A stretch of DNA of 64,000 nucleotides from Microbulbifer sp. THAF38 (GTDB lineage Bacteria > Pseudomonadota > Gammaproteobacteria > Pseudomonadales > Cellvibrionaceae). The DNA lies in assembly GCF_009363535.1 (NCBI RefSeq), contig NZ_CP045369.1:1995001-2059000 (forward strand), written 5' to 3'. A program made the position numbers and the translations under genes. The notes under the pieces are model-generated. The model was not told where the DNA came from and searched no databases. It saw only the letters and a list, made by a program, of their open reading frames with translations. Positions 1 to 19,563 of this stretch are shown here, one piece after another (within the stretch, counting starts at the first letter, position 1; the number at the start of each line of letters is the position of its first letter).

Positions 1-122
1 GTATTCGTGAAAAGCTGAAGTACAGCGACGTACCGGATGGCTTGAAAGGCCTGGGCATCACCTTCGTAACCGTTGGTCTGATGTCCCTGGGCTTCATGTC
101 CTTCGGCGGCATCGATATCTAA
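1..122 (+). CDS. nqrE: NqrE, C-terminal end (Na+-translocating NADH:quinone reductase subunit E), partial
   Basis: The first 122 bases hold the last 39 codons of a gene entering from the left. The frame starting at base 3 reads [18 protein letters not shown] and ends in FGGIDI before a TAA. This matches the C-terminus of NqrE, an integral membrane subunit of the sodium-pumping NADH:quinone oxidoreductase that, with NqrD, holds a membrane 2Fe-2S cluster. nqrF follows after 17 bases, the conserved order of this operon. Only the tail is visible, so the call rests on this match and on the neighbour. Confidence 0.85.
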
Positions 123-139
123 GCGGGGAAAACAATAGA

Positions 140-1363
140 ATGAGTATTGAAATTATCCTCGGCGTAGCGATGTTTACCGTCATCGTACTGGCGCTGGTGG
201 CGGTGATCCTTGCGGCCCGCTCGCGCCTGGTAAACACCGGCAACGTCAACATTTTGGTTAACGGTGAGAAGACTCTCACCGTACCGGCCGGCGGCAAGCT
301 GCTGCAAACCCTGGCTGCCAATAATCTGTTCCTGGCCTCCGCCTGTGGTGGCGGTGGTAGCTGTGCGCAGTGTGTATGTAAAGTGACTGCGGGCGGTGGC
401 GATATGCTGCCGACCGAAGCGGCTCACTTTACCCCGCGCGATGCGAAAGAAGGCAAGCGCCTTTCCTGTCAGGTTGCAGTTAAGCAGGACATGGAAATCG
501 AAGTGCCGGAAGAGGTGTTCGGCGTGAAGCAGTGGGAGTGCACTGTGGAATCCAACCCCAACGTTGCCACCTTCATTAAAGAGCTGACCTTGCGTCTGCC
601 CGAAGGCGAAAACGTTGATTTCCGCGCTGGCGGTTACGTTCAGCTGGAAGCCCCGGCTCACCACGTTAAATTTGCCGACTTCGAAGTGGAAGACCAGTAC
701 CGCGGTGATTGGGAGCACTTTGGCTTCTTCAAGCTGGAGTCCAAGGTCACCGAGCCAGTGGTTCGCGCCTACTCCATGGCTAACTACCCGGAAGAAAAGG
801 GTGTTGTTAAGTTCAACATCCGTATCGCGACTCCGCCGCCCCGTACCGAGGGTATCCCGCCGGGTCAGATGTCTTCCTACGTGTTCAGCCTGAAGCCGGG
901 TGACAAGATCAAGGTGTACGGACCCTTCGGTGAGTTCTTCGCCAAGGAAACCGACAACGAGATGGTGTTTATCGGTGGTGGTGCCGGTATGGCGCCGATG
1001 CGTTCACACATCTTCGACCAGCTCAAGCGTCTGCACTCCAAGCGCAAGATCAGCTTCTGGTACGGCGCGCGCTCTCTGCGCGAGATGTTCTACGAAGATG
1101 ACTACAACGGCCTGGCTGCTGAGTTTGATAACTTCAAGTGGCACGTGGCGCTTTCCGATCCGCAGCCGGAAGATAACTGGACGGGTTATACGGGCTTCAT
1201 TCACAACGTTGTGTATGAAAATTACCTGAAAGACCATCCGGCTCCGGAAGACTGTGAGTACTACATGTGTGGGCCGCCCATGATGAACGCCGCGGTAATC
1301 AATATGCTCAAAGACTTGGGCGTAGAGGATGAAAATATTCTCCTCGATGACTTCGGTGGTTAA
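140..1363 (+). CDS. nqrF: NqrF, NADH-oxidising subunit of Na+-NQR
   Basis: Subunit F takes electrons from NADH through FAD and a 2Fe-2S cluster and feeds them into the Na+ pump. The 407-residue protein has one N-terminal membrane anchor (about residues 3-26), a plant-type ferredoxin domain with cysteines 69, 75, 78 and 110, and a ferredoxin-reductase domain with the FAD-binding RAYSMANY motif, a [14 protein letters not shown]-binding loop and a YYMCGPP motif near the end. The length is normal for the family. The ATG is preceded by GGGGA. It follows nqrE directly and precedes apbE and nqrM, which supply flavin and iron to the same complex. Confidence 0.97.
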
Positions 1364-1377
1364 ACGGAGAGCTTAGT

Positions 1378-2436
1378 TTGCTAAACGCAATCAAAGCCCC
1401 GCAAAAAACAAAAACAGGGCCCGTTTTTCCGGCCCTGTTTTTGCTTTGTGTGGCTGTAATTTTTTCAGCCTGTACTCCAGGGGTGGAAAACTGGCAGCTC
1501 AGCGGCCGTACCATGGGTACCAGTTATCACATCACCCTAGTGGATGTTCCCGATGCTATAGACCGCAATGCGTTGCAGAAGCTGATCGATAGCGAGTTGC
1601 AGCAGGTCAACCAGGAGATGTCCACTTACATCAACGATTCCGAGTTGATGCTGCTAAATCGCGGCCCTATCGGCGAACCCATCCCGGTCAGCCAGCCACT
1701 CGCAGATATTGTAGAGATGTCCCTGGATATCTACCGTCGTAGCAATGGCGCCTTCGAGGTGACCGTTGGTCCTCTGGTCAATTTGTGGGGGTTTGGCCCC
1801 AAGCCTGAGCCGGAGCAGATTCCCGCTGATGCGGATATCGAACGCCTGCTAAAAGTTGTGGGATCTGATGCACTTTCGGTAACTCGTCAGCCGAATACCA
1901 TCACCCGCCAGCGGCCCGTGGAAATAGATTTGTCGGCTATTGCCAAGGGGCATGGTGTCGACCGGGTCGCCTTGTTATTGGAGCGTCAAGGGGTTCGTAA
2001 CTACCTGGTCGAGATCGGTGGTGAACTGCGAACCCGCGGGGTGAATCCAAAAGGTAAGGCTTGGCGAATTGGTATTGAAGCTCCAGATTCCTTCGGACAA
2101 ATGGTTCAGCAGCCTATAGAGGTTAGTGGTAAAGCGGTGGCCACCAGTGGCGATTACCGCAATTACTATGAGCGCGATGGCATCCGCTATTCGCACAGTA
2201 TCGACCCGCGTACCGGGCGGCCATTAACTCACAATCTCGCTTCGGTCACTGTGGTGGCTGAGAGTTGCGCAGAAGCTGATGGTTTGGCCACCGCCCTCAA
2301 TGTACTTGGTGCTAAAGAAGGGTTGGATTTGGCTGAGAGGGACAACCTGGCCGTTTTTATGCTGGTTAAAACTGATAAAGGATTTGAAGAGCGGTTTAGC
2401 TCCGCTTTTGCTCCTTACCTAGAGAGGTCTGAGTAA
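1378..2436 (+). CDS. apbE: ApbE, FAD:protein FMN transferase (lipoprotein)
   Basis: ApbE attaches FMN covalently to a threonine in target proteins; in this operon the targets are expected to be NqrB and NqrC. The 352-residue product has a hydrophobic N-terminus and a lipobox ending FSAC (Cys32), so it should be a periplasm-facing lipoprotein. Family features are GTSYHITL, the EVTVGPLVNLWGFGP segment, EIDLSAIAKGHGVD, and SHSIDPRTGRP with the metal-site residues. The start is a TTG 14 bases after nqrF, preceded by CGGAGA at a good distance; no better ATG lies nearby. The stop codon overlaps the nqrM start. Confidence 0.93.
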   Translation: MLNAIKAPQKTKTGPVFPALFLLCVAVIFSACTPGVENWQLSGRTMGTSYHITLVDVPDAIDRNALQKLIDSELQQVNQEMSTYINDSELMLLNRGPIGEPIPVSQPLADIVEMSLDIYRRSNGAFEVTVGPLVNLWGFGPKPEPEQIPADADIERLLKVVGSDALSVTRQPNTITRQRPVEIDLSAIAKGHGVDRVALLLERQGVRNYLVEIGGELRTRGVNPKGKAWRIGIEAPDSFGQMVQQPIEVSGKAVATSGDYRNYYERDGIRYSHSIDPRTGRPLTHNLASVTVVAESCAEADGLATALNVLGAKEGLDLAERDNLAVFMLVKTDKGFEERFSSAFAPYLERSE

Positions 2437-2678
2437 TGACAATTTTTATCTTTGCTTTTGTTGCCATGTTGTTAGTTGTCGCTGGCATGGCAATCGGCGC
2501 CATGGTGCAAAACAAGCCATTAAAAGGTTCCTGTGGTGGTTTGAATAATATTGGTATGAAGCAGGATTGCTCCATTTGTGGTGGCAATGACGACAAATGC
2601 GAAAAAGAGCAGGAGCGACAGCTTCAAGAAAAAGCTGCCGCTGAAGATCTTGCTTACGATGCCACTAAAAGCAAGTAA
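2436..2678 (+). CDS. nqrM: NqrM, Na+-NQR maturation protein
   Basis: This 80-residue membrane protein (DUF539 family) is known to be required for assembly of the Na+-NQR iron centre between NqrD and NqrE. It has one N-terminal transmembrane helix (about residues 3-24) followed by the conserved cysteine pattern GSCGGL, DCSICGG and KCE, thought to carry iron. The ATG overlaps the apbE stop by one base, indicating translational coupling. A highly charged Glu/Lys-rich tail follows the cysteines. Confidence 0.93.
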   Translation: MTIFIFAFVAMLLVVAGMAIGAMVQNKPLKGSCGGLNNIGMKQDCSICGGNDDKCEKEQERQLQEKAAAEDLAYDATKSK

Positions 2679-2687
2679 GCAGTCCCC

Positions 2688-2708
2688 AAGCCCGTGAGCA
2701 ACGGGCTT
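2688..2708 (+). terminator. Probable terminator after nqrM
   Basis: An 8-bp perfect stem (AAGCCCGT / ACGGGCTT) with a 5-base loop starts 10 bases after the nqrM stop and is followed by GTAGTTTTAT. The U-run is short, so termination may be partial. It fits the end of the nqr operon. Confidence 0.6.
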
Positions 2709-2722
2709 GTAGTTTTATATCA

Positions 2723-2750
2723 TTGGCACCAATCGTGCCGATTTTAATAT
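2723..2750 (+). promoter_or_regulatory. Possible sigma70-type promoter for sthA
   Basis: TTGGCA at 2723-2728 and TAATAT at 2745-2750 are 16 bases apart, about 60 bases before the sthA ATG and just after the nqr terminator. A small inverted repeat (GGCAC / GTGCC) overlaps the -35 element and could be an operator. This is pattern matching only. Confidence 0.4.
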
Positions 2751-2810
2751 TGAGTGTGAGTCGCTAGTACGGCTTACATTCCGTTTTGGAAAAAAGAATT
2801 AGAGCAATAG

Positions 2811-4208
2811 ATGGCAGAGCAAAAGTTTGACTTGGTTGTAATTGGTTCTGGCCCCGCAGGTGAGGCCGCCGCAATGAGTGCCGCGAAAAAGGGCATGCGC
2901 GTCGCAGTGATTGAAAAACGCCAGGTAGTGGGTGGCAATTGTACCCATAAAGGCACTATTCCCTCCAAGGCACTGCGCCACTCTGTCAAACAATTAATGC
3001 GCTATAACACTCAGAGTGTTTTTCGTGCTCTGGGTGAGCCGCGCCGCCTAACGTTTCCCCAGGTGATGCAGACGGTCAATAAAGTGATTTCCTATCAAGT
3101 GGAAATGCACACTTCTTTTTATGCGCGTAACCGAGTTGAATTGATCGTTGGGGCAGCAAATTTCCGCGATGCTAATAGCGTGGAAGTACAACTGCCCGAT
3201 GGTGCTATGGAAATTGTCACCGCGAAAAAATTTATTATCGCCACCGGCTCCCGCCCATATCGTCCCGCCGATGTAGACTTCGATCACGAGCGTGTTTACG
3301 ACAGCGATATGATTCTGGATATGCAGCACACGCCGCATTCCATCATGATCTACGGCGCCGGCGTGATTGGCTGTGAATACGCTTCTATTTTTGCTGGTCT
3401 CGGCATCAAGGTAGATTTGATCAATACACGCAGTAGCCTATTGGAATTCCTGGATGATGAGATCTCTGATGCCCTGAGTTATCACCTACGGGATATGGGA
3501 GTCACTGTTCGTCACCAAGAAGAGTATGCGCGTGTACTCCCGAATGAACAGGGCGTAATTATGGAAATGCAATCTGGTAAGCGTATCCATGCCGATGCTC
3601 TACTCTGGTGTAACGGCCGTACAGGTAATACCAGCTCCCTGGGACTGGAAAATGTCGGCCTCGAAGCCAACCATCGCGGCCAGTTAAGCGTGGATGATCA
3701 CTACTGTACTGAGGTGGAAAATATCTTTGCCGTCGGCGATGTTATTGGTTGGCCCAGCCTTGCCAGTGCCTCCTATGACCAGGGTAGGGCGGTAGCGGCG
3801 GCCATAGCCGGCCGCGGGCACCGTGTAATCGAGGATGCGCCCACTGGTATTTATACCTTACCGGAAATTTCCTCAGTGGGTAAAACCGAATCCGAACTCA
3901 CCGCTGCCAAGGTACCCTATGAGGTGGGGCGCGCGCTCTTTAAGCACACAGCGCGGGCTCAGATATCCGGCGAGCGCGTGGGCATGCTTAAGATTCTATT
4001 CCATATCGAGACCCGTGAGATCCTAGGCATCCACTGTTTTGGTGCTGAGGCGGCAGAGATCGTGCATATTGGCCAGGCCATCATGAAGCAGCCCTCTCCA
4101 AATAACACTATTGATTATTTCGTGAATACCACATTCAACTATCCCACCATGGCGGAGGCCTATCGCAGTGCCGCACTGGATGGCCTCAACCGGGTTGCAC
4201 GGCTATGA
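2811..4208 (+). CDS. sthA: Soluble pyridine nucleotide transhydrogenase SthA
   Basis: This flavoprotein moves reducing equivalents between NADPH and NAD+ in the cytosol and rebalances the two pools. The 465-residue product has the N-terminal FAD fold ([13 protein letters not shown]), the [17 protein letters not shown] segment, a second Rossmann motif ([18 protein letters not shown]), [13 protein letters not shown] for FAD and the C-terminal dimer domain. The second redox-active cysteine of lipoamide dehydrogenases is replaced (NCTHKGT), which is typical of SthA and separates it from Lpd. The thioesterase gene downstream overlaps its stop (ATGA), so the two are probably cotranscribed. Confidence 0.96.
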
Positions 4209-4669
4209 CAGAACCCTCACCCAGTGAGTTTCAGGAATTGGTAAAGGGTTTTTTTGAACAAATCCCTTTTAATCAACAAATTGGACTTGAGATGCGCTCC
4301 CTAGACCTAGAGGCACTTACTCTTTCCGCCGGCTTTCAACAACGTCCGGAGTTGATAGGTAACGTCTGGACGAATATTTTGCACGGCGGCGTAATTGCCA
4401 CTGCTCTGGATACTGTCGGTGGCCTTACCGCAATGGTTGCTGCATATCAGCGCATGGGGGATTTGCACTGGAAAGAAAAAGCCGATCGCCTTTCTAAGCT
4501 GGGTACGGTAGATATGCGCGTGGATTATTTAAAGCCCGGAAGGGGGGAGCACTTTCTCTGTGAAGGCTCGATTCTACGCACGGGCAATAAACTCGTGGTT
4601 GCGCGCATGGAGTTAAGTAATGACCGGGAAGAATTAATTGCTACTGGGACTGCGACATTTCTCTACTGA
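4205..4669 (+). CDS. Hotdog-fold thioesterase family protein
   Basis: A 154-residue protein with the hotdog thioesterase (PaaI/YbgC-like) pattern: [18 protein letters not shown] is the conserved HGG segment followed by the long central helix, and [11 protein letters not shown] matches the adjacent strand. Such enzymes hydrolyse acyl-CoA or acyl-ACP thioesters; the substrate here cannot be read. An insertion of about 15 residues ([17 protein letters not shown]) follows the helix. Its ATG overlaps the sthA stop codon, so it is translated from the same message. Confidence 0.85.
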
Positions 4670-4751
4670 TGTCCCCTTGGGTTAGTTGCAAGAACTGACT
4701 TGCAGCTAATTCGGTAAGCTGAAATGCTTTTGTAAATTGCGAGGGGACTTT

Positions 4752-5198
4752 GTGAAAATATTACGATGTGAAAGCCATCATGTGCCTGAGGTGGCTCAAT
4801 TATTTGATGAATACAGGGTGTTTTGTGGCTATAAATCGGACTTAATTGGAACTGAGTCTTTTCTAACCAGCTTGATCGACAGTCAGGCTTCCACACTTTT
4901 TATAGCAATAGATTCCGAGTGTCCTGAGGTAATGGGTTTTGTGAATCTTTATCCCAGCTTTTCTTCCCTTGCTCTTGCACGTCTGTGGATTTTAAATGAC
5001 TTAGGGGTGTCAAACCGCTATAGGGGGAGGGGCGTTTCTAAGAAGCTGATCCAGGCTGCGATAGATTTTGCAAAGGAAACTCAGGCCATTCGTATTGAAC
5101 TTAAAACAGAGAAAAGAAACAATCGCGCACGTCAATTATATCAGTCTTTAGGTTTTGAGATTGACTGTGAAAATATTTACTACAGAGTACCTTGTTAA
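4752..5198 (+). CDS. GNAT-family N-acetyltransferase
   Basis: A 148-residue protein whose central motif A, YRGRGVSKKLIQAAIDFA, is the acetyl-CoA pyrophosphate-binding loop of GNAT enzymes; the C-terminal part ends with ARQLYQSLGF, the typical motif B. The substrate is unknown. I chose the GTG at 4752 because GAGGGG lies just before it; an in-frame TTG at 4737 has no such site. The gene stands alone, beside the integron integrase, in DNA richer in A+T than the nqr region, so it may be part of the accessory block. Confidence 0.85.
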   Translation: MKILRCESHHVPEVAQLFDEYRVFCGYKSDLIGTESFLTSLIDSQASTLFIAIDSECPEVMGFVNLYPSFSSLALARLWILNDLGVSNRYRGRGVSKKLIQAAIDFAKETQAIRIELKTEKRNNRARQLYQSLGFEIDCENIYYRVPC

Positions 5199-5278
5199 AA
5201 AGCAACGGGTCTTTTAGTAGAGAGTGAGAGAAGGACTTAAAGCTCAGCAGTTTTTAGAGGTCTTGCCTGGGGCTCAAT

Positions 5279-6259
5279 CTAATCTAATGGACTGTTAATT
5301 TCACGTTCATGTACACCAATCACATGAGTGTAGATCATCGTAGTACTTATATCATTGTGACCAAGAAGCTCTTGAATATTGCGAATGTCTGCACCCGATC
5401 GTAATAGGTTGGTAGCGAATGAATGCCTGAAGGTGTGACAGCTGGCTTTTTTTCGTATACCCAAGGTCGAAATAGCCCTAGCAACTGCACGTCTAATCTG
5501 TTGTTCCGCTAGATGATGCCTTCGTATGATTCCGCTACGAGGATCCAGCGAACGCTCTCTGGCTGGGAACAGATACTGCCAGGCAGGGTTAGTTTCCGCT
5601 TTTGGGTACTTTTTCGACAGGGCAAATGGTAAATAGACCTTACCAAAACCTTCTGCAAGATCTTGCTTGTGTATGGTCAGTGCCGTATGGATTTGTACCC
5701 GAATAGGTTCAACCAGAGAATTGGGCAGAAGGGTTCTTCGCCACTTTTCACCCTTGGATTCCCTTACCACCAAGAATTGATCAGAGAAATCCACATCTTG
5801 TACTCGAAGCCGAACCGCCTCCATCACACGGAGACCTGATCCATACATCAATGATGCAGCGAGTTTAGCCGGACCGTTCAGCTTGCTTAAAATCCCAGTG
5901 GCTTCCTGATGGCTAAAAACCACAGGCAGCCGCCGTGGGCGGTGGCTACCTTCAAATTGAAGCTGCCCCAAGTCGACACCCATAAATTGCTTATATAAAA
6001 AAACAATCGCATTTAAGGCTGTTCTTTGTGTATTGACTGATACAGAGCGGTTGGCAGCTAGGTGACTTAACCAAAGGTCCACTTCAGGCTTGCCGAGGTC
6101 TTCTGGCCGCTGCATTTTATTGAAGCGGATAAAATCCTTAATCCAATAACAATAGGTCTGCTCAGTCTTATAGGCTAAGTATCGAGAGCGCATAAAAGTA
6201 CGTAAACGATCCATAAATTGGGATGGATGCTTGGGGATAGGTACAGGAATGTCATCCAT
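5279..6259 (-). CDS. intI: Integron integrase (tyrosine recombinase IntI)
   Basis: A 326-residue tyrosine recombinase that would recombine attI and attC sites to capture or shuffle gene cassettes. All catalytic positions are present: R144 ([10 protein letters not shown]), K169, H275 and R278 ([18 protein letters not shown]), H301 (LGHNDISTT) and the nucleophile Y310 (MIYTHV). Between K169 and H275 lies the extra segment unique to IntI proteins ([18 protein letters not shown], then [13 protein letters not shown]), which separates it from XerC/D and phage integrases. The end (INSPLD) also resembles IntI1. No frameshift or stop is visible, so the enzyme should be active. It diverges from the cassette gene. 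Confidence 0.96.
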
Positions 6260-6620
6260 TTCAAAATACCTGTTATGTATTTATGTACAGTATTGTGGAG
6301 GAAGTGACCGGATTGCAAATCGAATTTCAATCAATTTGATTGTTATTTTGAGGTTTTGGAGTATTTCATTTAAAAAGTTAATAAATACAGAGAGTTATGA
6401 GTAAATAGAAATTCCTGGATAGTAATCATGTCGATCACTTTTCCATTGAGTACGATAGTGCAAATTCAAGGTAAGTTTCTGACTTAAGTGGATATTTGGA
6501 AAGTTGACGCAGGATTGCTTCCGGGATAACAATCAGGATAATAGAGGGCGTTGTGATTACTATATAAATGTTACACGTCAGTCACCACATGAAGTGTCAA
6601 CCGAAAAATGGATGTCATAG
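6260..6620. other. attI: Integrase/cassette intergenic zone with presumed attI
   Basis: These 361 bases between the divergent integrase and first cassette gene should hold attI, the integrase promoter and the cassette promoter. The best crossover candidate is G6550|TT, in GAGGGCGTT; it resembles the GAGGCGTT at the right end of the attC at 8984. If correct, the cassette starts at 6551 with a 70-base leader before its ATG. The exact attI cannot be fixed by eye. An AT-rich palindromic element lies at 6270-6290. Confidence 0.5.
6270..6290 (-). promoter_or_regulatory. SOS-box-like inverted repeat with non-standard spacing upstream of intI
   Basis: CTGT and ACAG half-sites flank 13 bases (normal LexA boxes have 8) eleven bases upstream of the integrase ATG. 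Integrase genes are often LexA-controlled, so the position is suggestive, but the spacing argues against normal LexA binding. Confidence 0.2.
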
Positions 6621-8885
6621 ATGAATAAGCTTTCGCAAAAAGAAAGGGTCGTATCACTAGGGATAGATCTTCTTCTGCTTTTGATTATTTGTACCATAGC
6701 ATTTGGCAGCTTATACCCACCAGTAGGTGATAGTGGATTCTGGTTTTACGCCGCATTGCTCAGCGTTCTTGTCGGGTCAAAAATAGTAACCCCATTTTAT
6801 GTAAAGCCTGTTGATGCTATTTCATATTCAGTCCCTGCATTTGTATCACTAATGCTTGTGAATAGTTGGGCTACGTGGCCGATTGAGACTAAGATTGCAT
6901 TTTTTGCGGTGTCATCACTATCTGGATTGATTTTAATTATTTCGTTGCTAGCTATCATTCTGAATAATTGGGGTAGTGAAAGGATACAAAAGGTCTCAAA
7001 TAAAATTCGGATATTTCTTGAAGTGTTCGCAAAACCTCAAGTTATCTACACTCCAATTATTATATTTGCGATGTATTCCTATCACATTGGGAAGCCAAAT
7101 GAATTAATACTAATATCTATAGCCATATTGCTTACAGTAGCTATGTCGGCTGGGGATGTTTTAGTTAAGACATTCAACAGGATTAGAAAAACAACTAAGA
7201 TAGGCCAGCAGGTATCTAGCGTCGCAGAAATTGCGGCTTACCAGCAGCCAAAAATCATTCTACTTCGTCAAGCTAAAGATAACGATTTGCCGCTTAAGAA
7301 AATTGTCTACGTAAAAGATAAGCATTCCAACTCTAAGTTGGCTCTTACACTTGATTTAGTCGGTCGAGATAATGGTGTTCTGACTCGCTCTGTTGAAATT
7401 GCAAGCCTCCAATCTGGACAATATCAAGAGCTCGAGTCTGTTGTTTCAAATGACTCGGTTGCGGTAATTGAAGAAGAATATCTTCTAGAAATTTGTGCTA
7501 CAGAAGGAATTGATTTGGCATCTGGGGATAGCGTTGTTGGTATTGTAGCACCCGACACTTCAATTGAGAGGTTGTTCTTTGAGGTAGTAGATAACTCAAA
7601 TATTGAAGAAGGACGCCTAGTAACCGTAAACATACAAGGCCAAAAGGTTCTCTATCAAATCGTTGGCGGTTTGACGAGAGAAGAAGCCGTACATCAAAAA
7701 AATACTTATGGTTATTTGCGAGTTCAAGCGCAGCAAGTCGGTGTTTGGAACGAACAGCAGAGAAAATTCACTCAGTTTAGTTGGCTGCCTAACATCAATG
7801 AACCGGTATATCTTGAGGCGCAAGAAAACTACGCTATTGAGCCAGATACTATAGGTCACTTTCCCGATAGCAATTACCAAGTAAAAATTGGAAATATAAA
7901 TCATTTAGTAACTCATAATACGGCGATTCTTGGGATTCTTGGCGTAGGAAAGTCCATGCTCGCAATAGAGTTGCTAGAGAGAATGATGGTCGAGGGAATT
8001 AAAGTTGTATGTCTAGATCTAACGGATCAATATTCATCAGAACTGTCGGACTATTATAACGCTCCATATGAAGAAGAATGTATTCAAAGGCTAAGAGCTG
8101 CCACTGATCAAGATCGAGATGTATGGCAGGAAAATCCGGAGCAAGGCGGTAGCTTACCTAATTTGAAGAATGCATTTTTCGAAGATTTAAATAGATTTAT
8201 TAACAATTCAGATGGGCATCTTCTAAAAATTTATAACCCAGCAGAGTTTGTTGCTACACGACAAGATAGGGCGCCAGGTAGCTTTCAAACTAGGGGCCAG
8301 TGGCAGCGTGGCGCTCCACTATTTAGTGTTACACCTGTAGAAATTACGAAAATTGTATCAGAGACTGTTCTTGATATTCTATCTGCCGAAATGTCAGACA
8401 ATGCTAGGGTTTGTTTGGTTTATGAAGAAGCCCACTCGCTTGTTCCAGAATGGAACTCTGTTGTTGCAGAAGGTGATAAGCACGCAACTAGCGGTACAGC
8501 TAGAGCAATTCTCCAAGGAAGAAAGTTTGGTCTTGGATGCTTGCTGATTACACAGAGGACAGCAAATGTTACGAAAACTATCCTCAATCAGTGCAATACT
8601 ATATTCGCTATGCGCACATTTGATGATACTGGAAAGGAATTTCTAGGTAATTATATTGGAAAAGATTACGCTCAATCTTTGTCTTCAGTAAAAGAGCGTC
8701 ATGCAGTCTTCTTTGGTAGAGGATCTAGTTGTGAAAACCCAGTTTTGATGAAAGTAAACAATAGAGATGATTTTTTGAGATCATATAGAGGAATACATCA
8801 ACCCCCTGTATTTCCTCCAGTAGACTCTATTCCTGCTCAAGAACAACAACTAGAACCTGAGTTCGATGATGATGTCCCGTTCTGA
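6621..8885 (+). CDS. Membrane-anchored HerA/DUF87-type ATPase, integron cassette gene
   Basis: This 754-residue protein has about six predicted membrane helices in residues 13-182, then a linker, a beta-rich region (about 205-400) that could be a HAS-barrel, and a P-loop ATPase domain. The Walker A is GILGVGKS (438-445), the Walker B region is CLVYEEAH (598-605), and GRKFGLGCLLITQRTANV (633-650) matches the HerA/FtsK-like helicase-translocase superfamily (DUF87). The C-terminus is acidic (EFDDDVPF). Soluble HerA proteins act as hexameric DNA translocases and recur in phage-defence systems with nuclease or SIR2 partners; no partner gene is seen here. It is a large cassette and is followed directly by attC. 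The function is unknown; defence is an inference. Confidence 0.85.
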   Translation: MNKLSQKERVVSLGIDLLLLLIICTIAFGSLYPPVGDSGFWFYAALLSVLVGSKIVTPFYVKPVDAISYSVPAFVSLMLVNSWATWPIETKIAFFAVSSLSGLILIISLLAIILNNWGSERIQKVSNKIRIFLEVFAKPQVIYTPIIIFAMYSYHIGKPNELILISIAILLTVAMSAGDVLVKTFNRIRKTTKIGQQVSSVAEIAAYQQPKIILLRQAKDNDLPLKKIVYVKDKHSNSKLALTLDLVGRDNGVLTRSVEIASLQSGQYQELESVVSNDSVAVIEEEYLLEICATEGIDLASGDSVVGIVAPDTSIERLFFEVVDNSNIEEGRLVTVNIQGQKVLYQIVGGLTREEAVHQKNTYGYLRVQAQQVGVWNEQQRKFTQFSWLPNINEPVYLEAQENYAIEPDTIGHFPDSNYQVKIGNINHLVTHNTAILGILGVGKSMLAIELLERMMVEGIKVVCLDLTDQYSSELSDYYNAPYEEECIQRLRAATDQDRDVWQENPEQGGSLPNLKNAFFEDLNRFINNSDGHLLKIYNPAEFVATRQDRAPGSFQTRGQWQRGAPLFSVTPVEITKIVSETVLDILSAEMSDNARVCLVYEEAHSLVPEWNSVVAEGDKHATSGTARAILQGRKFGLGCLLITQRTANVTKTILNQCNTIFAMRTFDDTGKEFLGNYIGKDYAQSLSSVKERHAVFFGRGSSCENPVLMKVNNRDDFLRSYRGIHQPPVFPPVDSIPAQEQQLEPEFDDDVPF

Positions 8886-8891
8886 AAAAAC

Positions 8892-8990
8892 GTGTAACAA
8901 GTCAAAGCACTCGGACTTGTTAAAGTTGTCATCTTTTTTGTGTCAAAAAGAGCCGCCAACTTCACCAAGTCGGTGTTTGAGGCGTTAAAT
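8892..8990 (+). other. attC: attC recombination site of the HerA cassette
   Basis: The 99-bp site begins with GTGTAAC (R'' side) and ends with GTTAAAT, a perfect match to the GTTRRRY core. The two arms are imperfect inverted repeats over about 36 bases: the left arm TAACAAGTCAAAGCAC and the reverse complement of the right arm, TAACGCCTCAAACACC, agree except for a short mismatched block and single unpaired bases, and the pairing continues through GGACTTG...AAGTTG. Such extrahelical bases and a mismatched spacer are features of folded attC sites. The loop is AT-rich. Its position 7 bases after the cassette stop is typical. Confidence 0.85.
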
Positions 8991-9667
8991 GCAAAACTTA
9001 CCCACGTTTAATAGACACCCTGTATTGTTAGATTTAGGCCTAACATGAGTTAGAGTATATGAACTTATAGATATAAAGTTTGCACAGAAGATAAGCCAAT
9101 AGATATTGGCCTTTGACATAGCTCTCGAGCTCCAATGACCTGAGTTGAGTATGAATATAAAGGATGAAGAGTATTACGATGCTATGTGAGCGGAGAGCGG
9201 AAATTCCTACCCAAGTTATTCAGGTATGGTTAATGGTATTGAGTCTCCCTTGAAATATCTGGCCTCTAGGTTTACGGCGAAAACTACTGGCTCAAGTCTC
9301 TCGTGAGTACTATAAGTACTCTTTAAACAGTCAAGCACAATCACTACTACTATTTATGCGCTGGCTGAATCTCGCGACCTGTAAAAGTTCTCCGCTATGA
9401 CCTAACACTGAACTACATTTTTCTAGCCTCTAGATCTAAAAACTCTTCAGTAGATCTTTATTCAACTCTATTAGATTTTCTGGCCATATTATCCATGCAT
9501 GTAGCTTTCAGGTAAGTATTCCAATACTATCTACTTGAGTTGGAAAGCAGTGAATAAAGCGACACTGGGATATCTACTAAATTTTCGAATTAGTCTGGGT
9601 GAAGTTAAGTGTGGAATTTTTGTATTGGCATCTTCTATCTAACCAATAGATTAACCGAGCTTATATT
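8991..9667. other. Apparently non-coding, decayed stretch after the integron
   Basis: No convincing intact gene occurs here. At 9027-9044 a GTTAGAT core is followed at once by GCCTAAC, the two integron core consensus forms back to back around the palindrome TTAGGCCTAA, but no attC arms surround them. A frame at 9151-9306 reads protein-like but has an in-frame stop. A 7-bp hairpin (GAGTACT / AGTACTC) lies at 9305-9321. The stretch may be the ruins of further cassettes. Confidence 0.5.
9151..9306 (+). pseudogene. Possible disrupted small gene with in-frame TGA
   Basis: From ATG 9151 the frame reads MNIKDEEYYDAM, then a TGA at 9187, then 38 further codons including YPSYSGMVNGIESPLKYLA before TGA 9304. 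The part after the stop looks like normal protein. It could be a cassette gene killed by a Trp-to-stop change, or chance. I do not recognise a family. Confidence 0.25.
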
Positions 9668-10771
9668 TTGATGTTTATATTCATAGTAATCTATAGCGTT
9701 GTAATGGCAATATTTACCCTGCTACCTACTTTAAGGTATGAGGCTTGGTATATACGCGGATTTGATTTTCCGAGATTGCAGTTCTCAATATTGTTAATTT
9801 TTCTTTTGATACTTCAATGTATTTTTCTTGATTTTAGTAGCCCCATGGCTTACGGCTTGGTTCTAGTTAGTCTTTTTTGCTTAGGATGTCAGTTGTGGCG
9901 GATAGTTCCTTACATGTTTCTTTTCCCAATTCAAGTGGGGCGTGTAAGTTCACGGGAAGGACATCTTGAGGATTACGATAACATTAGTATTTTGACTGCT
10001 AATGTACAAGGTTCAAATAGAAGAGCAGCAGACTTTTTAGATATCGTTAAGCGGTATAATCCGGACATTATACTCACGCTTGAGTCCAATAAATGGTGGC
10101 AGTCTCAGCTAGACACGTTAGAAGCAAGCTATCCATATACGATAAAGTGTCCTCTCGAAAATTTATATGGGATGCACGTTTATTCCAAGCTCCCTTTGTC
10201 GGATAGTCAAATACAATTTTTGGTTGAAGATAATGTGCCTTCTATGCACACTCTGGTTCAGACTCCTCAAGGCCATATGATTAATGCTCATTTTTTGCAT
10301 CCTGCCCCTCCAAGTCCAACTGAAAATGATACTTCTGAAGAGAGGGATGCGGAGCTCCTGGTTGTTGCAGAAAAAGTGAAGGACAAGACTTCGCCCATTA
10401 TCGTTGCAGGCGACTTTAATGATGTGACTTGGTCTCGTACTACACGACTATTCAGAAAAGTTAGTGGGCTGCTAGATCCACGTATTGGGCGAGGCCTGTT
10501 TAATACTTTTCATGCTAAATATTGGTTTATACGTTGGCCATTGGATCATTTGTTCCACAGTAAACACTTTAAACTACTAAGTATTCAGCGTTTACAGGAG
10601 TTTGGTTCTGACCATTTCCCTTTATTGATCCATTTGCAGATTCAGGCTCAAGTTGTAGCTGATGAAAGTACAGAATCATTGGCACCAAGAGAGGAGAGCG
10701 TAGCTCAAGAAAAGACCGCTCAGCAAAATGTTGATGTTAGTGATGTGGCTTCTTTGGGAAGTTCAAAGTAG
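9668..10771 (+). CDS. Membrane-anchored endonuclease/exonuclease/phosphatase (EEP) family protein
   Basis: A 367-residue protein with two or three N-terminal membrane helices (about residues 1-20, 38-55, 60-85) followed by an EEP hydrolase domain. Catalytic landmarks are the SILTANVQGSN strand, the metal ligand glutamate in DIILTLESN, INAHFLHP, VAGDFNDV and the final GSDHFPLL. EEP enzymes cleave phosphodiesters in nucleic acids, nucleotides or lipids; membrane-anchored members are common in marine gammaproteobacteria and their substrate is unknown. A charged tail of about 45 residues follows the domain. There is no attC after it, so it is probably not a cassette. Confidence 0.85.
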   Translation: MMFIFIVIYSVVMAIFTLLPTLRYEAWYIRGFDFPRLQFSILLIFLLILQCIFLDFSSPMAYGLVLVSLFCLGCQLWRIVPYMFLFPIQVGRVSSREGHLEDYDNISILTANVQGSNRRAADFLDIVKRYNPDIILTLESNKWWQSQLDTLEASYPYTIKCPLENLYGMHVYSKLPLSDSQIQFLVEDNVPSMHTLVQTPQGHMINAHFLHPAPPSPTENDTSEERDAELLVVAEKVKDKTSPIIVAGDFNDVTWSRTTRLFRKVSGLLDPRIGRGLFNTFHAKYWFIRWPLDHLFHSKHFKLLSIQRLQEFGSDHFPLLIHLQIQAQVVADESTESLAPREESVAQEKTAQQNVDVSDVASLGSSK

Positions 10772-10786
10772 TTGGTAGCGTTGCTC

Positions 10787-10810
10787 TAAGGCATATAGTG
10801 TTATGCCTTA
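10787..10810 (+). terminator. Probable terminator after the EEP gene
   Basis: An 8-bp stem TAAGGCAT / ATGCCTTA with an 8-base loop sits 16 bases after the stop and is followed by AGTTTTC. Confidence 0.55.
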
Positions 10811-11129
10811 AGTTTTCAGGTGTTAGTGATTAATTTATACTTTGACTAATGACTAAGTAATAGTTCGGCAATGACTTCTTTTTATATTGTGGGGTTGATT
10901 CGGGGGTAGAAATGCTCATTGAATCTTTTAAGGTCGTCAGGAGAGAATAGAGGGGGGGTGCGGGTTGGCAAAAATGGTAGGGCTAAATTTATTTAAATTA
11001 AACTTCGGTTAGATTGGGCAAGCGATTAAGGATCATTCACTTGCACATACATGCTGTCCGTTCTTACTGCTGATTTTTATTAAAAATCCGTTTCTTGTAG
11101 AAAATTGTGGGCTAAATATTTATAGAGTG
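10811..11129. other. AT-rich intergenic region, nothing recognised
   Basis: The convergent space between the EEP gene and the BON-domain gene. I see no open reading frame or RNA gene here. Confidence 0.5.
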
Positions 11130-11152
11130 GAGGGGCTGCTTTGCAGCCCCTC
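11130..11152 (-). terminator. Terminator of the BON-domain gene
   Basis: A perfect 10-bp stem GAGGGGCTGC / GCAGCCCCTC with a TTT loop lies 8 bases beyond the minus-strand gene's stop. The U-rich tail on the minus strand is poor, but the stem is strong. Confidence 0.6.
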
Positions 11153-11160
11153 AAGACTTA

Positions 11161-11715
11161 TTATCCGGTTACTTTTAGCTTGTTAACCACCTTTTGCACA
11201 TCGTCGGTATTCTCTGCGATGGCCTGCGCTAGGTCTTTCTGAGCGCTAGACTTGACGGAGCCTTTAAGGGTAATCGTGCCTTCTTGAGCAGACACATCAA
11301 TCTTAGTTCCGGAGACTTCTCGGTCAAGCAATAATCGTGTTTTTACAACGGTGGCAATCTTGGTGTCTGTATATTCCTTTGAGATGCTTTCTCCAAGGCT
11401 TTCTTTGTTGACGACAGTAAGTTTGTTATTAACTTTCTTGACGCCATCAATGCCAGTAATTAGTTCCTCTGCGAGACGTTTATCGATATTACTTTCCACC
11501 TCGCCTGTCAGCATAACTACACCATTATTGACATCAGTATCAATGGCAAAATTGTTTAGGTTCTCATTGAGTAATAGGATGGTCTCTGCTTTTCCGTCGA
11601 GCCATGCATCACTCATAGTTAAGCTTTTCTGATCTGATTTTTCCCCTGCCATAGCACCAGCTGAAAAGGATACTGCGATGATGGCGGCGCTAAGAGTGCT
11701 TTTCATAAGATTCAT
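11161..11715 (-). CDS. Two-BON-domain periplasmic protein (OsmY-like)
   Basis: A 184-residue protein with a signal peptide (cleavage near AGAMAGE, residue 23) and two BON domains (about 45-110 and 118-183). Each has the motif pattern V-x-L-x-G-x-V: NNGVVMLTGEVES and QEGTITLKGSVKS. BON proteins such as OsmY are periplasmic and respond to osmotic or envelope stress, probably by binding phospholipids. The first ATG is preceded by GGAG; an internal ATG three codons on is a weaker choice. It lies just downstream of an unknown helical protein gene on the same strand. Confidence 0.88.
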   Translation of the reverse strand: MNLMKSTLSAAIIAVSFSAGAMAGEKSDQKSLTMSDAWLDGKAETILLLNENLNNFAIDTDVNNGVVMLTGEVESNIDKRLAEELITGIDGVKKVNNKLTVVNKESLGESISKEYTDTKIATVVKTRLLLDREVSGTKIDVSAQEGTITLKGSVKSSAQKDLAQAIAENTDDVQKVVNKLKVTG

Positions 11716-11749
11716 AAATTACTCCATTCTTTGCTTGTGACACAGTAAC

Positions 11750-12259
11750 TCAAGCAGCTTTCATGCCAAGTTTTTCTGATGATGTTTTCATGCTTTTTTC
11801 TTGGTTAAGGGTAATAAGGTGTTTTTCCAGTTGTTCGATAGCTGTTTGTTGCTTTGCTGTTAGTGCGGAGAGCGCCATTCTCAGGTGGCTATCGCCTGTG
11901 GATTGGATAACTTTTAGCTGATGAAAACTCTGTAATTTTTCACATTCAATGAGTCTGTTAATTAGTCTTTTGGGAGGATGTTTTATGATTATGGCAATTG
12001 GTCGTCGTTCTATTATCCACTTTTTTATCGAAAGTGATGTGTTGAAGGAGGCTCCGTCAAGTAAATTTTTTACATTCTCATGTAAATCTTTCAAATTCTT
12101 GAAAGTCTCCCTAATGCTTGGATTTCCTATGTTACCTAGACCGGTTTTATAAAATAGCCTGGCATTTAAGCTTAGGTAGTAGATGGTGTTTATTTCATGC
12201 TCTATTGATTGTTGTGATAAGTTTGATGACGTTGATGGTTTCATTGGTAGATGTGACAT
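11750..12259 (-). CDS. Uncharacterised helical protein
   Basis: A 169-residue protein with no signal peptide or membrane segment. The sequence suggests a helical bundle, with helices around residues 15-70 and 105-150 (EIDxIYYLSLNAR-like start, then LINRLIECEKLQSFHQLK). It faintly recalls DUF2383/ferritin-like stress proteins found near BON-domain genes, but I cannot assign a family. It lies 34 bases upstream of the BON gene on the same strand, so the two may form a small stress operon. Confidence 0.6.
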   Translation of the reverse strand: MSHLPMKPSTSSNLSQQSIEHEINTIYYLSLNARLFYKTGLGNIGNPSIRETFKNLKDLHENVKNLLDGASFNTSLSIKKWIIERRPIAIIIKHPPKRLINRLIECEKLQSFHQLKVIQSTGDSHLRMALSALTAKQQTAIEQLEKHLITLNQEKSMKTSSEKLGMKAA

Positions 12260-12604
12260 TTTTTATCTCTATTAAATTCTGTGAGTTTGGGTAGGTTTAA
12301 GTGCCTACTATTGGGAATTTGTAAGTTGTTCATTGAGCTTCCTTTGAGGAAACTCAAGCTTTTATTCTATGTTGAGCGATGGGTGGTGATTTATAGCTGT
12401 AGGATGGTTTTATATCGGGGCAGTGTCGGTCAGAATTGGAGGCGCTGATTTCTTGAGTTCTGGGTGATTGCGGGCATGAAAAATATAGTATGAGTGTTTT
12501 GTTGTAATGTCTTAAATTTTAGTTCCGTATTCTATTGCTGTAGTTGGCTCCCGGATTCTTATTGAATGGAGCCTGCTTGAATTAAAATCTAATAATTAAT
12601 TGAT
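12260..12604. other. Intergenic region, nothing recognised
   Basis: AT-rich sequence upstream of the helical-protein gene. It should contain that gene's promoter, but I see no clear -10/-35 pair and no coding frame. Confidence 0.4.
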
Positions 12605-12638
12605 CTCTAGGGAAACGATCTGGGGCGTTTCCCTAGAG
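12605..12638 (-). terminator. Strong hairpin terminator after the small lipoprotein gene
   Basis: A perfect 13-bp stem CTCTAGGGAAACG / CGTTTCCCTAGAG with an 8-base loop lies 57 bases beyond the lipoprotein stop. It is flanked by AT-rich tracts on both sides, so it could work in either direction. Confidence 0.65.
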
Positions 12639-12694
12639 TAGATTTTTAGCAATATAAGGATGAGAAGGGTGTTTCATCTCCCCTTGCAAAACAA

Positions 12695-12892
12695 CTAGCA
12701 GTCGGTATCTTTTGCATTGCCCCCCTCTTTAACTTCTTCACAAGCATCTTCAATCTGATTGCCGGCTTGCTCAGCTTTGTTGTCGATTCGCTCTCCGAGG
12801 GTTTCAGCAGATTGCTCCTCACAGGCTGCGAGAGAGAAACTGAATACTGCTGCAAGTAGAACTAAACTGAGTTTCTTCATTGAATTGTTCAT
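12695..12892 (-). CDS. Small lipoprotein
   Basis: A 65-residue protein with a lipoprotein signal peptide: KKL, a hydrophobic stretch, and a lipobox ending LAAC (Cys24). The mature part is only about 40 residues, acidic, with two further cysteines (DACEEV and the final DTDC). The ATG is preceded by GGAG at a good distance. An overlapping reading frame on the same strand lacks these features. Function unknown; small lipoproteins of this kind are often envelope-stress proteins, which would suit the BON-gene neighbourhood. Confidence 0.7.
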   Translation of the reverse strand: MNNSMKKLSLVLLAAVFSFSLAACEEQSAETLGERIDNKAEQAGNQIEDACEEVKEGGNAKDTDC

Positions 12893-13189
12893 GGGGCTCT
12901 CCTTTGGTCGAATTTTGGATCACTAAACTCTTTGCTAAAACTTGCTAGACAAAAAGTGTTTATTTCAATAATCCAGATAACTGTATCTGTAATAAAGCAA
13001 GAGCTATGCCAATTTGTTATTTTCAGTTTTTACAGGGTGAAAGGCTATTTTTACTGTTGGTAGGGATGGAGGCGTGAAAATATTTCAAGGGTCTATGTAA
13101 TATCTTCACTTACTGCTCCTAGCTGTAAGGAAAGCTATCAAGCATTTTATTGTGAGACGGAAGAGATAATAGAGGTGAATCGAAGTAGA
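12893..13189. other. Intergenic region, nothing recognised
   Basis: AT-rich sequence between the small lipoprotein gene and the trmA terminator. No gene is seen; the lipoprotein promoter should be at its left end. Confidence 0.4.
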
Positions 13190-13218
13190 CTTGGGGGCGA
13201 CACAGTGATGCCCCCAAG
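13190..13218 (-). terminator. Probable terminator after trmA
   Basis: A 9-bp perfect stem CTTGGGGGC / GCCCCCAAG with an 11-base loop lies 19 bases beyond the trmA stop. The minus-strand tail (TCTACTTC) is only weakly U-rich. Confidence 0.5.
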
Positions 13219-13236
13219 AATAAGCCCAACAGGGTT

Positions 13237-16937: not shown

Positions 16938-17115
16938 TTAGCGACTCCTGCTATTTAATCGATACCGGAATCATATAGCTCGCGGTGGGGACCATCAAGT
17001 CGGTAAATCCCTTTTAAGCGCTGGCTATAAATCGAGATGAATTCGAAAAACCGTAGTTTTATTAGGGGTTTAGTCGAATCTTCTCCTGCTAATAATGAGG
17101 GCCTCAGGGGATTTT

Positions 17116-19563
17116 TCAAGTAGGTTTAGTTGCTCCCGGGCGAAAAGGCACCTCGATATCAACAATCAATGGCAGGTGATCCGAGGCCTGCCGGGTGAGT
17201 GTGGTACGGGGCACTCGCACTTTTTTCACTGCGATGCCGGCACTCAAGAAAACATGGTCGATGCGAACTTTGAGAAAAGTGCCTTTGGGAGAGTGTCTGG
17301 GGGCCTGTTCCTGGGCGTCGCGCAGGTAACCACTTAATCGCTTGCACTCGGCAGAGTTGGGCAGTGCGTTGAAGTCGCCGAGTAAAATCCGCTCGCCCTT
17401 ACAGCGTGGGTTCCCCAGCCATTCTGGCCCCAGCAACGCATCCACCTGGCGCAGGCGTTCAATACGGGAGAGGCCCAGGTGGGTGTTGATCACCTGGATC
17501 TTGCTGCCATTGTGTTCAATCTCTACCCAGATGGCGCCGCGAGGTTCATCGGCAGCCGGATTGAATAGGCGTCCCTTGCCCTCGGGTGGTCCCGGCAAAA
17601 TCCCTTTTTTGATCAGCTTGGCTGGTAGATGAGTAAGAATGGCATCGCCGTAGAGTTCTTCATTGAGGTGAATGGCGGGCTGGAAGTGCACATCCATCGC
17701 GAGCAGCCGCGCCAGCCGCTCTGCTTGATCGAGCCCCCCGCTGCGTTTACGTCTCACATCTAACTCCTGCAGGGCGACTATATCGGGGCGGTAGCGGGCG
17801 ATTACCCGGGCGATGCGCTGGGGTGACAAGGTGCCATCGGTTCCCTGGCAGCTGTGCACGTTATAGGTCATCACCCTTAGGGTTTTTTGCGGCGCTTGGT
17901 GCTCATCCAGTTTCATGGGACGGGCCCCACGCAGGTAGGCCCTTGCAGCGGTACGCAGATCCTGTGGGCGCCAATACCCCAGGCGAGGGTCTGGAGGTTG
18001 GATATCTTGCGGCATCAGGGCAAAGGCGTGGGTTTCCCTGGGGCCGGCGGCGCCGTGGCTGCCGTTTTCCATCGCGAAGGTCAGCGGTTGCTCTTCAGTG
18101 GAGCACCAGCCGTACATCATAAAGTCGCCGGCGTCTGGGTGGCTGCACAGGCTCATCATGTCGGCTATAGACTGCTCTGGATAGGGATGCTCATCTCCCA
18201 TCAACTTGCGGCCATCCTCCGGCAATCGCACCGGGCCGTGTTTCCACCAGCCGTGTACTGGGGAATCTGCTGAAGTGGGGTCCACCCGATAGAGCACCAG
18301 AGGTATTTTGGCCTCTTCAACGATCTTGCGGGCGACTTCCTCGCGACCGATATCTCCCAGCTCCAGGTTATAGAGCATGGCCAGTGGACCGAGGGCAGTG
18401 AGCGCCAATGGCGTTTTCTGAGCAGTCTGCTCGGTTGGTTGCTCCTGCTTTTCAATATCCTTTTTATCCATCCACTCGCTGCCAAACAGGCGCGCGCGCT
18501 CCAACTGAACGCCGTGCCTGGTCTGGCCAGGTTCAATTTCAGGTGGCTTGGCGAGCCCAGAGAGTGTTTCTGATAGGGCATCGCCAAGGCTGCGGCCATA
18601 AATCTCTTCGTAGGGTTTGGTTTGCTCCTGGCCGTGGTCGGAAAAAATCCACACATCGTAATGGCGCCGATCAGAGACATGCGCGGCACGCCAGATTCGG
18701 GCCACGGCATCGTCAATGCCCTTCAAGACCCAGTGGGCAAACGCCGAGCGTGGACCGCGGCGATGGGATTGCTCGTCATAGCCGAGCAAATTGACATAGA
18801 TAATGGGTAGGCCACGGCTGATATCGACCTTGGCGCCCATAGTACAAAACTCCCGCGAGAGGATGGTGACGCCGACCCGCGTGGGGATAAACATCAGTTC
18901 CTTTATAAAACTTTGCCCCTGCATGACCCCGCGCACGCAGTCTATGAGCGAGAGTAATAATTCCACCAAAATTAGCGCGCCCGTGCGTATCAGGCTCCAT
19001 AAGTTGCTGAGGATAAGGACTGCGATAGTCCACGGGCTGGCGCTGCGCAGGGCCGGTCCCCAACCTTGATCGGCCGGGCAAAAGTGGGCTTCGCCTGTTT
19101 TGGTGCCGGCGCGAAATAGGCTCAGGTAACAACTTCCGCCGCGCAGCAGCGGATCGCGCTGCTGGAACATGGCTCGGCTTTCCACCAGCGCGGCTACTTC
19201 AGGATCGTACATACGGCCTAGCTTTTGGGTTTCGTGTATCAAAAAACCAAAGGCCGGTACCGCCTGGCGTACGCCATAGAAAAGTTCTGCCTGCACGGCG
19301 GGGGTGGTGGAGGGGACTCCCGAAAACATGTGCTCCAAACGGTAGTGCTCTTTGCGAATCAAACGCTTCAAAAAAGGCATCCTGCCTCTGGCCAAGGCCT
19401 TTAATAATTCCGGGTGGGCCAGGCCGTCGATTTGGATCAGGATTAACCCCGGAGCATGGGGCTGGTGACCGCTGGTAGAAAGTCCCAGCAACTTGGCGAT
19501 CCACTCGCTGCGGCTGAAGCGGCGGCGCCAGCGCCTGATGGATAGTCCGACTCGGCTTATCAT
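17116..19563 (-). CDS. Fusion of an alkaline-phosphatase-superfamily hydrolase and an EEP phosphoesterase
   Basis: An 815-residue protein with two phosphoesterase modules. Residues about 35-545 resemble the alkaline phosphatase/phosphodiesterase superfamily: metal site LIQIDGLAH (D46), candidate nucleophile Thr in GVPSTTPAVQ (86-87), GYDEQSHRRGP, FSDHGQEQ and HGAAGPRETHAF. One or two hydrophobic segments (about 178-205) suggest membrane association. Residues 563-805 are a complete EEP domain: RVMTYNVHS, QELD (E600), NTHLGL, GDFN (D730) and SDHLP. It ends a four-gene operon, 9 bases after the glycosyltransferase. A lipid or glycolipid phosphodiester substrate is plausible but inferred. Confidence 0.85.
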   Translation of the reverse strand: MISRVGLSIRRWRRRFSRSEWIAKLLGLSTSGHQPHAPGLILIQIDGLAHPELLKALARGRMPFLKRLIRKEHYRLEHMFSGVPSTTPAVQAELFYGVRQAVPAFGFLIHETQKLGRMYDPEVAALVESRAMFQQRDPLLRGGSCYLSLFRAGTKTGEAHFCPADQGWGPALRSASPWTIAVLILSNLWSLIRTGALILVELLLSLIDCVRGVMQGQSFIKELMFIPTRVGVTILSREFCTMGAKVDISRGLPIIYVNLLGYDEQSHRRGPRSAFAHWVLKGIDDAVARIWRAAHVSDRRHYDVWIFSDHGQEQTKPYEEIYGRSLGDALSETLSGLAKPPEIEPGQTRHGVQLERARLFGSEWMDKKDIEKQEQPTEQTAQKTPLALTALGPLAMLYNLELGDIGREEVARKIVEEAKIPLVLYRVDPTSADSPVHGWWKHGPVRLPEDGRKLMGDEHPYPEQSIADMMSLCSHPDAGDFMMYGWCSTEEQPLTFAMENGSHGAAGPRETHAFALMPQDIQPPDPRLGYWRPQDLRTAARAYLRGARPMKLDEHQAPQKTLRVMTYNVHSCQGTDGTLSPQRIARVIARYRPDIVALQELDVRRKRSGGLDQAERLARLLAMDVHFQPAIHLNEELYGDAILTHLPAKLIKKGILPGPPEGKGRLFNPAADEPRGAIWVEIEHNGSKIQVINTHLGLSRIERLRQVDALLGPEWLGNPRCKGERILLGDFNALPNSAECKRLSGYLRDAQEQAPRHSPKGTFLKVRIDHVFLSAGIAVKKVRVPRTTLTRQASDHLPLIVDIEVPFRPGATKPT

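What the first reader, a model, noticed from the sequence alone, without database searches (positions are those of the whole stretch)
6621..8885. A membrane-anchored HerA-like ATPase as the only cassette of a chromosomal integron
Seen: an N-terminal region with about six membrane helices, a beta-rich middle, and a DUF87/HerA ATPase with Walker A (GVGKS), Walker B and TQR motifs, in a gene whose stop is followed by attC. Known: HerA ATPases work in DNA processing and in multi-gene phage-defence systems with nuclease, SIR2 or DUF4297 partners; integron cassettes increasingly turn out to carry defence genes. Inference: this could be a one-gene defence system in which a DNA translocase is tethered to the membrane. 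The large 2.3-kb size is unusual for a cassette, and no partner effector is present.
Basis: partly seen in the sequence, partly recalled or inferred. Interest (0 to 1): 0.85.

Follow-up and report, generated by a model that had tools for sequence, protein, structure and literature searches.

The report
Membrane-anchored HerA motor in integron cassette
A single integron gene cassette encodes an ATP-driven DNA motor of the HerA family fused to a membrane domain; relatives often sit among restriction-modification genes, and some in integrons or a prophage, so it is probably a one-gene defence against invading DNA.

The parts
5279..6259 (-). integron integrase IntI, 326 aa, divergent from the cassette
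   Evidence: TIGR02249 3.7e-123; 82% identical protein at the same locus in relative G371
6512..6570 (+). attI region, recombination point G^TT at 6570/6571
   Evidence: 81% match over 62 bp (6512-6573) to the relative's sequence between integrase and first cassette; GTTACAC at 6570
6571..8984 (+). the complete gene cassette, 2,414 bp
   Evidence: both G^TT points; a matching unit with the same ends inside a Mu-like prophage, L002
6621..8885 (+). membrane-HerA gene, 754 aa
6621..7205 (+). residues 1-195: about six membrane helices plus two amphipathic helices
   Evidence: model; hydropathy over 99 aligned sequences, weakest for helix 37-52
7206..7514 (+). residues 196-298: beta domain resembling the HerA/ATP-synthase barrel
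7515..7895 (+). residues 299-425: HerA's own barrel domain
   Evidence: lies inside the structural alignment to HerA, model residues about 298-725
7896..8795 (+). residues 426-725: HerA RecA-type motor; GVGKS, EEAH, TQR
8892..8990 (+). attC site
   Evidence: fold z -3.7 and -4.3; same attC type in 36 of 144 family genomes, own included

Best explanation
The cassette encodes a membrane-tethered, probably hexameric, HerA-type DNA translocase that acts alone as a defence against invading DNA. Shown by sequence and model: membrane domain, a barrel-like domain, complete HerA barrel and motor with intact catalytic residues, cassette structure, patchy distribution, and relatives in restriction-modification, integron and prophage loci. 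Inferred: defence as the function; a ring fixed by its N-terminal face to the inner membrane, the face where soluble HerA relatives dock a nuclease or SIR2 effector (recalled, from no call). Proposed: the ring threads phage or plasmid DNA as or soon after it enters, and ATP-driven pulling at the membrane stalls its entry or holds it where restriction enzymes and nucleases destroy it.
Against: No functional data. No nuclease domain was found in the protein, so any DNA destruction must come from elsewhere. No homologue in 50,697 phage records and none by pattern scans of IMG/VR; the prophage case is single. For 26 of 37 loci I have no R-M gene within three ORFs, and several (L007, L013, L017, L019, L023, L123) show no obvious defence gene by eye. 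The loci were found with patterns from this query, not at random, and the control is narrow. Hexamer, direction of pulling and topology were not tested.
Confidence: 0.5

Rival explanations
1. Abortive-infection pore: the HerA part senses phage DNA or a DNA intermediate, and the multi-subunit membrane domain opens or disrupts the inner membrane, stopping infection by killing or stalling the cell.
For: Membrane domain present throughout the aligned family and under purifying selection; no nuclease domain; one relative sits beside a SLATT membrane-effector gene.
Against: No convincing fold or sequence match of the membrane helices to a pore or membrane effector, which is weak evidence either way; the SLATT neighbour was seen in one locus.
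Confidence: 0.25
2. Accessory of restriction-modification (overlaps with the first explanation): it tethers or translocates DNA so that host restriction enzymes or nucleases reach it, and has little effect alone.
For: R-M genes within three ORFs in at least 11 of 37 loci, of type I, II and III, sometimes between their subunit genes.
Against: No single R-M type; this cassette has no R-M gene beside it; defence islands collect unrelated systems, e.g. SIR2/HerA pairs between R/M systems in S. thermophilus (PMC11514479, passages).
Confidence: 0.2
3. DNA-transfer or segregation motor: a coupling-protein or FtsK-like pump that exports or partitions DNA for a mobile element or chromosome.
Confidence: 0.07
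4. Selfish or neutral cargo: the cassette is kept by mobility, with no benefit to this host, or benefits only a prophage or plasmid.
For: One hit in the genome, absent from nearly all relatives searched.
Against: dN/dS below 0.26 in every domain for the two pairs window-L001 and window-L002 (L003 is saturated in most domains); relatives in Proteobacteria, Bacteroidetes and others by record title.
Confidence: 0.08

Closest known systems
SIR2-HerA (Nezha) and DUF4297-HerA anti-phage complexes
   Same: HerA barrel plus RecA-type motor; top fold matches (8xau, 8ziq, 8xaw); defence setting
   Different: those HerAs work with a SIR2 or DUF4297 effector; here the N-terminal end carries a membrane domain and a further barrel-like domain, and no partner gene is conserved
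HerA-NurA DNA end processing (archaea, Deinococcus)
   Same: same HerA fold (4d2i, 9x1m, 7wrw)
   Different: no NurA named among the neighbours scanned; membrane domain here; loci here are not repair loci as far as seen
DndH, TdpA and 'HerA/FtsK capture systems' (PMC10853773 and PMC12839542; passages only)
   Different: multi-gene operons; the passages returned by my terms mention no membrane HerA, and 'transmembrane' does not occur in PMC12839542
Defence genes in integron cassettes (Darracq et al., Kieffer et al.; seen only as reference entries in PMC13092281)
   Same: a probable defence gene as integron cassette
   Different: the papers were not held, so I cannot say whether this family is listed there
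Membrane-anchored DUF4041 defence protein and PD-T7-2 (PMC9519451; passages)
   Same: a defence protein put at the membrane; a HerA-like second protein in PD-T7-2
   Different: the DUF4041 protein ends in a DNA binding/cleavage domain; PD-T7-2 has two proteins
Conjugative coupling proteins TrwB/VirD4 and FtsK
   Same: N-terminal membrane helices (recalled) with a pumping ATPase

Membership tests
HerA superfamily (DUF87) | HerA barrel followed by RecA-type motor with Walker A, EEAH Walker B and TQR motifs | tested here: met
HerA superfamily (DUF87) | hexameric ring translocating DNA | not testable with these tools
   no multimer prediction or biochemistry
SIR2-HerA / DUF4297-HerA systems | adjacent SIR2 or DUF4297 effector gene | tested here: not met
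   the ORFs on either side of the cassette are an integrase, a GNAT and an endonuclease/exonuclease/phosphatase family protein
SIR2-HerA / DUF4297-HerA systems | full match to the anti-phage HerA equivalogs NF042943 and NF042944 | tested here: not met
   48.2 and 46.2 bits against cutoffs 800 and 850
Integron gene cassette | one gene plus attC, bounded by G^TT points, next to attI and IntI | tested here: met
HerA-NurA repair module | neighbouring NurA nuclease | tested here: inconclusive
   none beside the cassette or among the 30 neighbour proteins given to Pfam; other neighbours were not tested for it
Conjugative coupling protein | relaxase or type IV secretion genes nearby | tested here: inconclusive
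   none among the neighbours annotated or given to Pfam, but not every neighbour was scanned
Anti-phage defence system | protection against phage or plasmid entry | not testable with these tools
   needs a laboratory assay

The most novel reading that the evidence does not exclude
An inner-membrane DNA motor that works against injection: the ring, with its barrel face toward the membrane, grips incoming phage or plasmid DNA and uses ATP to drive it back toward the envelope, blocking entry without a nuclease, carried as a self-contained mobile cassette among bacteria and at least one prophage.
Probability: 0.13. Interest if true: 0.85.

Novelty: new variant of a known kind. Interest (0 to 1): 0.6.

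Why it matters
HerA motors in defence are known as engines for nuclease or NAD-consuming partners. A family that replaces the partner with a membrane domain would be a different way to use the same engine, at the point where DNA enters. As one small mobile cassette it is easy to clone and test, and it links integrons, restriction-modification loci and a prophage as carriers of one gene.

Full report
What is there. The ORF at 6621-8885 (+) is 754 aa. The divergent ORF 5279-6259 is an integron integrase (TIGR02249, 3.7e-123). The cassette runs from 6571, after G 6570, to G 8984, 2,414 bp; the stop codon ends six bases before the attC arm GTGTAAC (8892-8898), which is complementary to the GTTACAC at the cassette start. 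The attC bottom strand folds better than all 200 shuffles in one call and 199 of 200 in another. The strongest support is independent: 36 of 144 genomes of the family, own included, carry DNA matching this attC. The own genome gives one hit for the gene, one for the integrase at E <= 1e-70 and one for this attC.

Chromosomal setting. In relative G371 the region matches the window at 88% from 1 to 6265 and again at 6512-6573, ending three bases past the cassette junction. There the array holds other cassettes, and the match resumes at window 13237, in a gene that I call trmA-like from memory. So this is a shared chromosomal integron site with differing content; here one attC-bearing cassette was recognised. 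Proteins encoded at 9668-10771 (Exo_endo_phos) and 11161-11715 were not found at the relative's site; 8985-9667 shows no recognisable cassette and could be eroded array.

Relatives. The protein search scored 955 hits at E <= 0.001 and listed 120, nearly all labelled DUF87. In genomes the gene is rare: hits at E <= 1e-50 in 2 of 369 of the class, 3 of 390 of the order and 4 of 144 of the family, own included, two of the four at only 29% identity. By record title relatives reach Alphaproteobacteria, Desulfobacterales, Bacteroidetes, a cyanobacterium and others.

Integrons and a prophage. The 95% identical L001 gene starts right after an attC-like site (fold z -2.4, 4 of 200 shuffles as good) that follows a gene I read as GIY-YIG-like; no attC was recognised after it. 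L122, from another genus of the family, holds a 29% identical relative between attC-like sites: the upstream one folds at z -5.9; the downstream one, picked by eye, only at -1.6 with 19 of 200 shuffles as good, though its arm matches the cassette start. That genome's integrases lie about 0.8 and 1.8 Mb away. L002, Amphritea, carries the complete cassette with its attC (z -4.7), bounded by G^TT points, in a Mu-like prophage: PHROGs name transposase, DNA transposition protein, late activator, endolysin, terminase and portal around it. Integron parts in phages are already described (PMC9892861; abstract and section 3.3 read). L003 begins with the same GTTACACG but no attC was found after it.

Defence neighbourhoods. 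Of 37 loci (window, L001-L030, L082, L083, L113, L114, L122, L123), at least 11 have an R-M gene within three ORFs: L005 (Eco57I type), L006 (HsdS before, HsdM after), L010 (HsdM, HsdS, HsdR directly before), L011 (BsuBI/PstI type), L018 (MmeI), L020 (Bpu10I and a methylase), L026 (HsdM, HsdS), L027 (methylase before, Res after), L083 (R-M genes by annotation), L113 (Mrr-like next, HsdR third), L114 (N6/N4 methylase next, S8 protease and AAA before). PADLOC tallies for 65 and 94 neighbour ORFs gave 238 and 325 families; of the 25 listed in each, 24 and 23 are R-M. 120 neighbours of 20 control loci gave 13 families, none R-M. Fisher p for 11 of 37 against 0 of 20 is 0.005, with different scanning on the two sides and a narrow control. 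L082 lies by a reverse-transcriptase gene, and L016 holds a homologue of it. For the other 26 loci I have no R-M gene within three ORFs. No partner is shared: among 297 neighbour ORFs of 33 loci only serine recombinases (by eye) and HsdM recur in three or more.

Interpretation. Shown: a mobile, selected, membrane-anchored HerA motor whose relatives are often in defence or mobile settings. Inferred: defence. In known complexes (recalled) the effector docks on HerA's barrel face; here that end leads into the membrane, so the membrane domain takes the effector's place. The simplest mechanism is capture and stalling of incoming DNA at the inner membrane; a triggered pore and an R-M accessory role are the main rivals, and the latter overlaps with the first.

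Literature. Ten library searches were made, seven of them with 'HerA'. In their listings and in the passages opened (PMC9519451, PMC13092281, PMC12839542, PMC12948488, PMC11514479, PMC10853773) no membrane HerA was described. The two Science papers on defence in integrons and the 2004 FtsK-HerA survey were not held, so novelty is provisional.

Noticed in passing
L002:9943-12370: A whole integron cassette with its attC sits inside a Mu-like prophage of Amphritea atlantica, between the late activator gene and the endolysin gene, bounded by G^TT points.
   Followed up: partly
L122:8168-10530: A divergent (29%) membrane HerA lies between attC-like sites, far from that genome's integrases; an attC at 17066-17163 of the same locus is nearly identical to the window's.
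   Followed up: partly
L108 and L118 (relative G371): The same chromosomal integron locus with an array of about 12 kb up to the trmA-like gene, starting with two near-identical tandem units.
   Followed up: partly
L113:2129-8605: A 2,158-aa ORF next to a membrane HerA and an R-M operon, with no Pfam match at 1e-5.
   Followed up: no
L114:628-8102: AAA ATPase and S8 protease genes, then membrane HerA, then an N6/N4 DNA methylase, all in one direction.
   Followed up: no
window 8985-13236: Stretch between the cassette and the trmA-like gene with no counterpart at the relative's locus; its endonuclease/exonuclease/phosphatase-family gene has a relative downstream in L001.
   Followed up: partly
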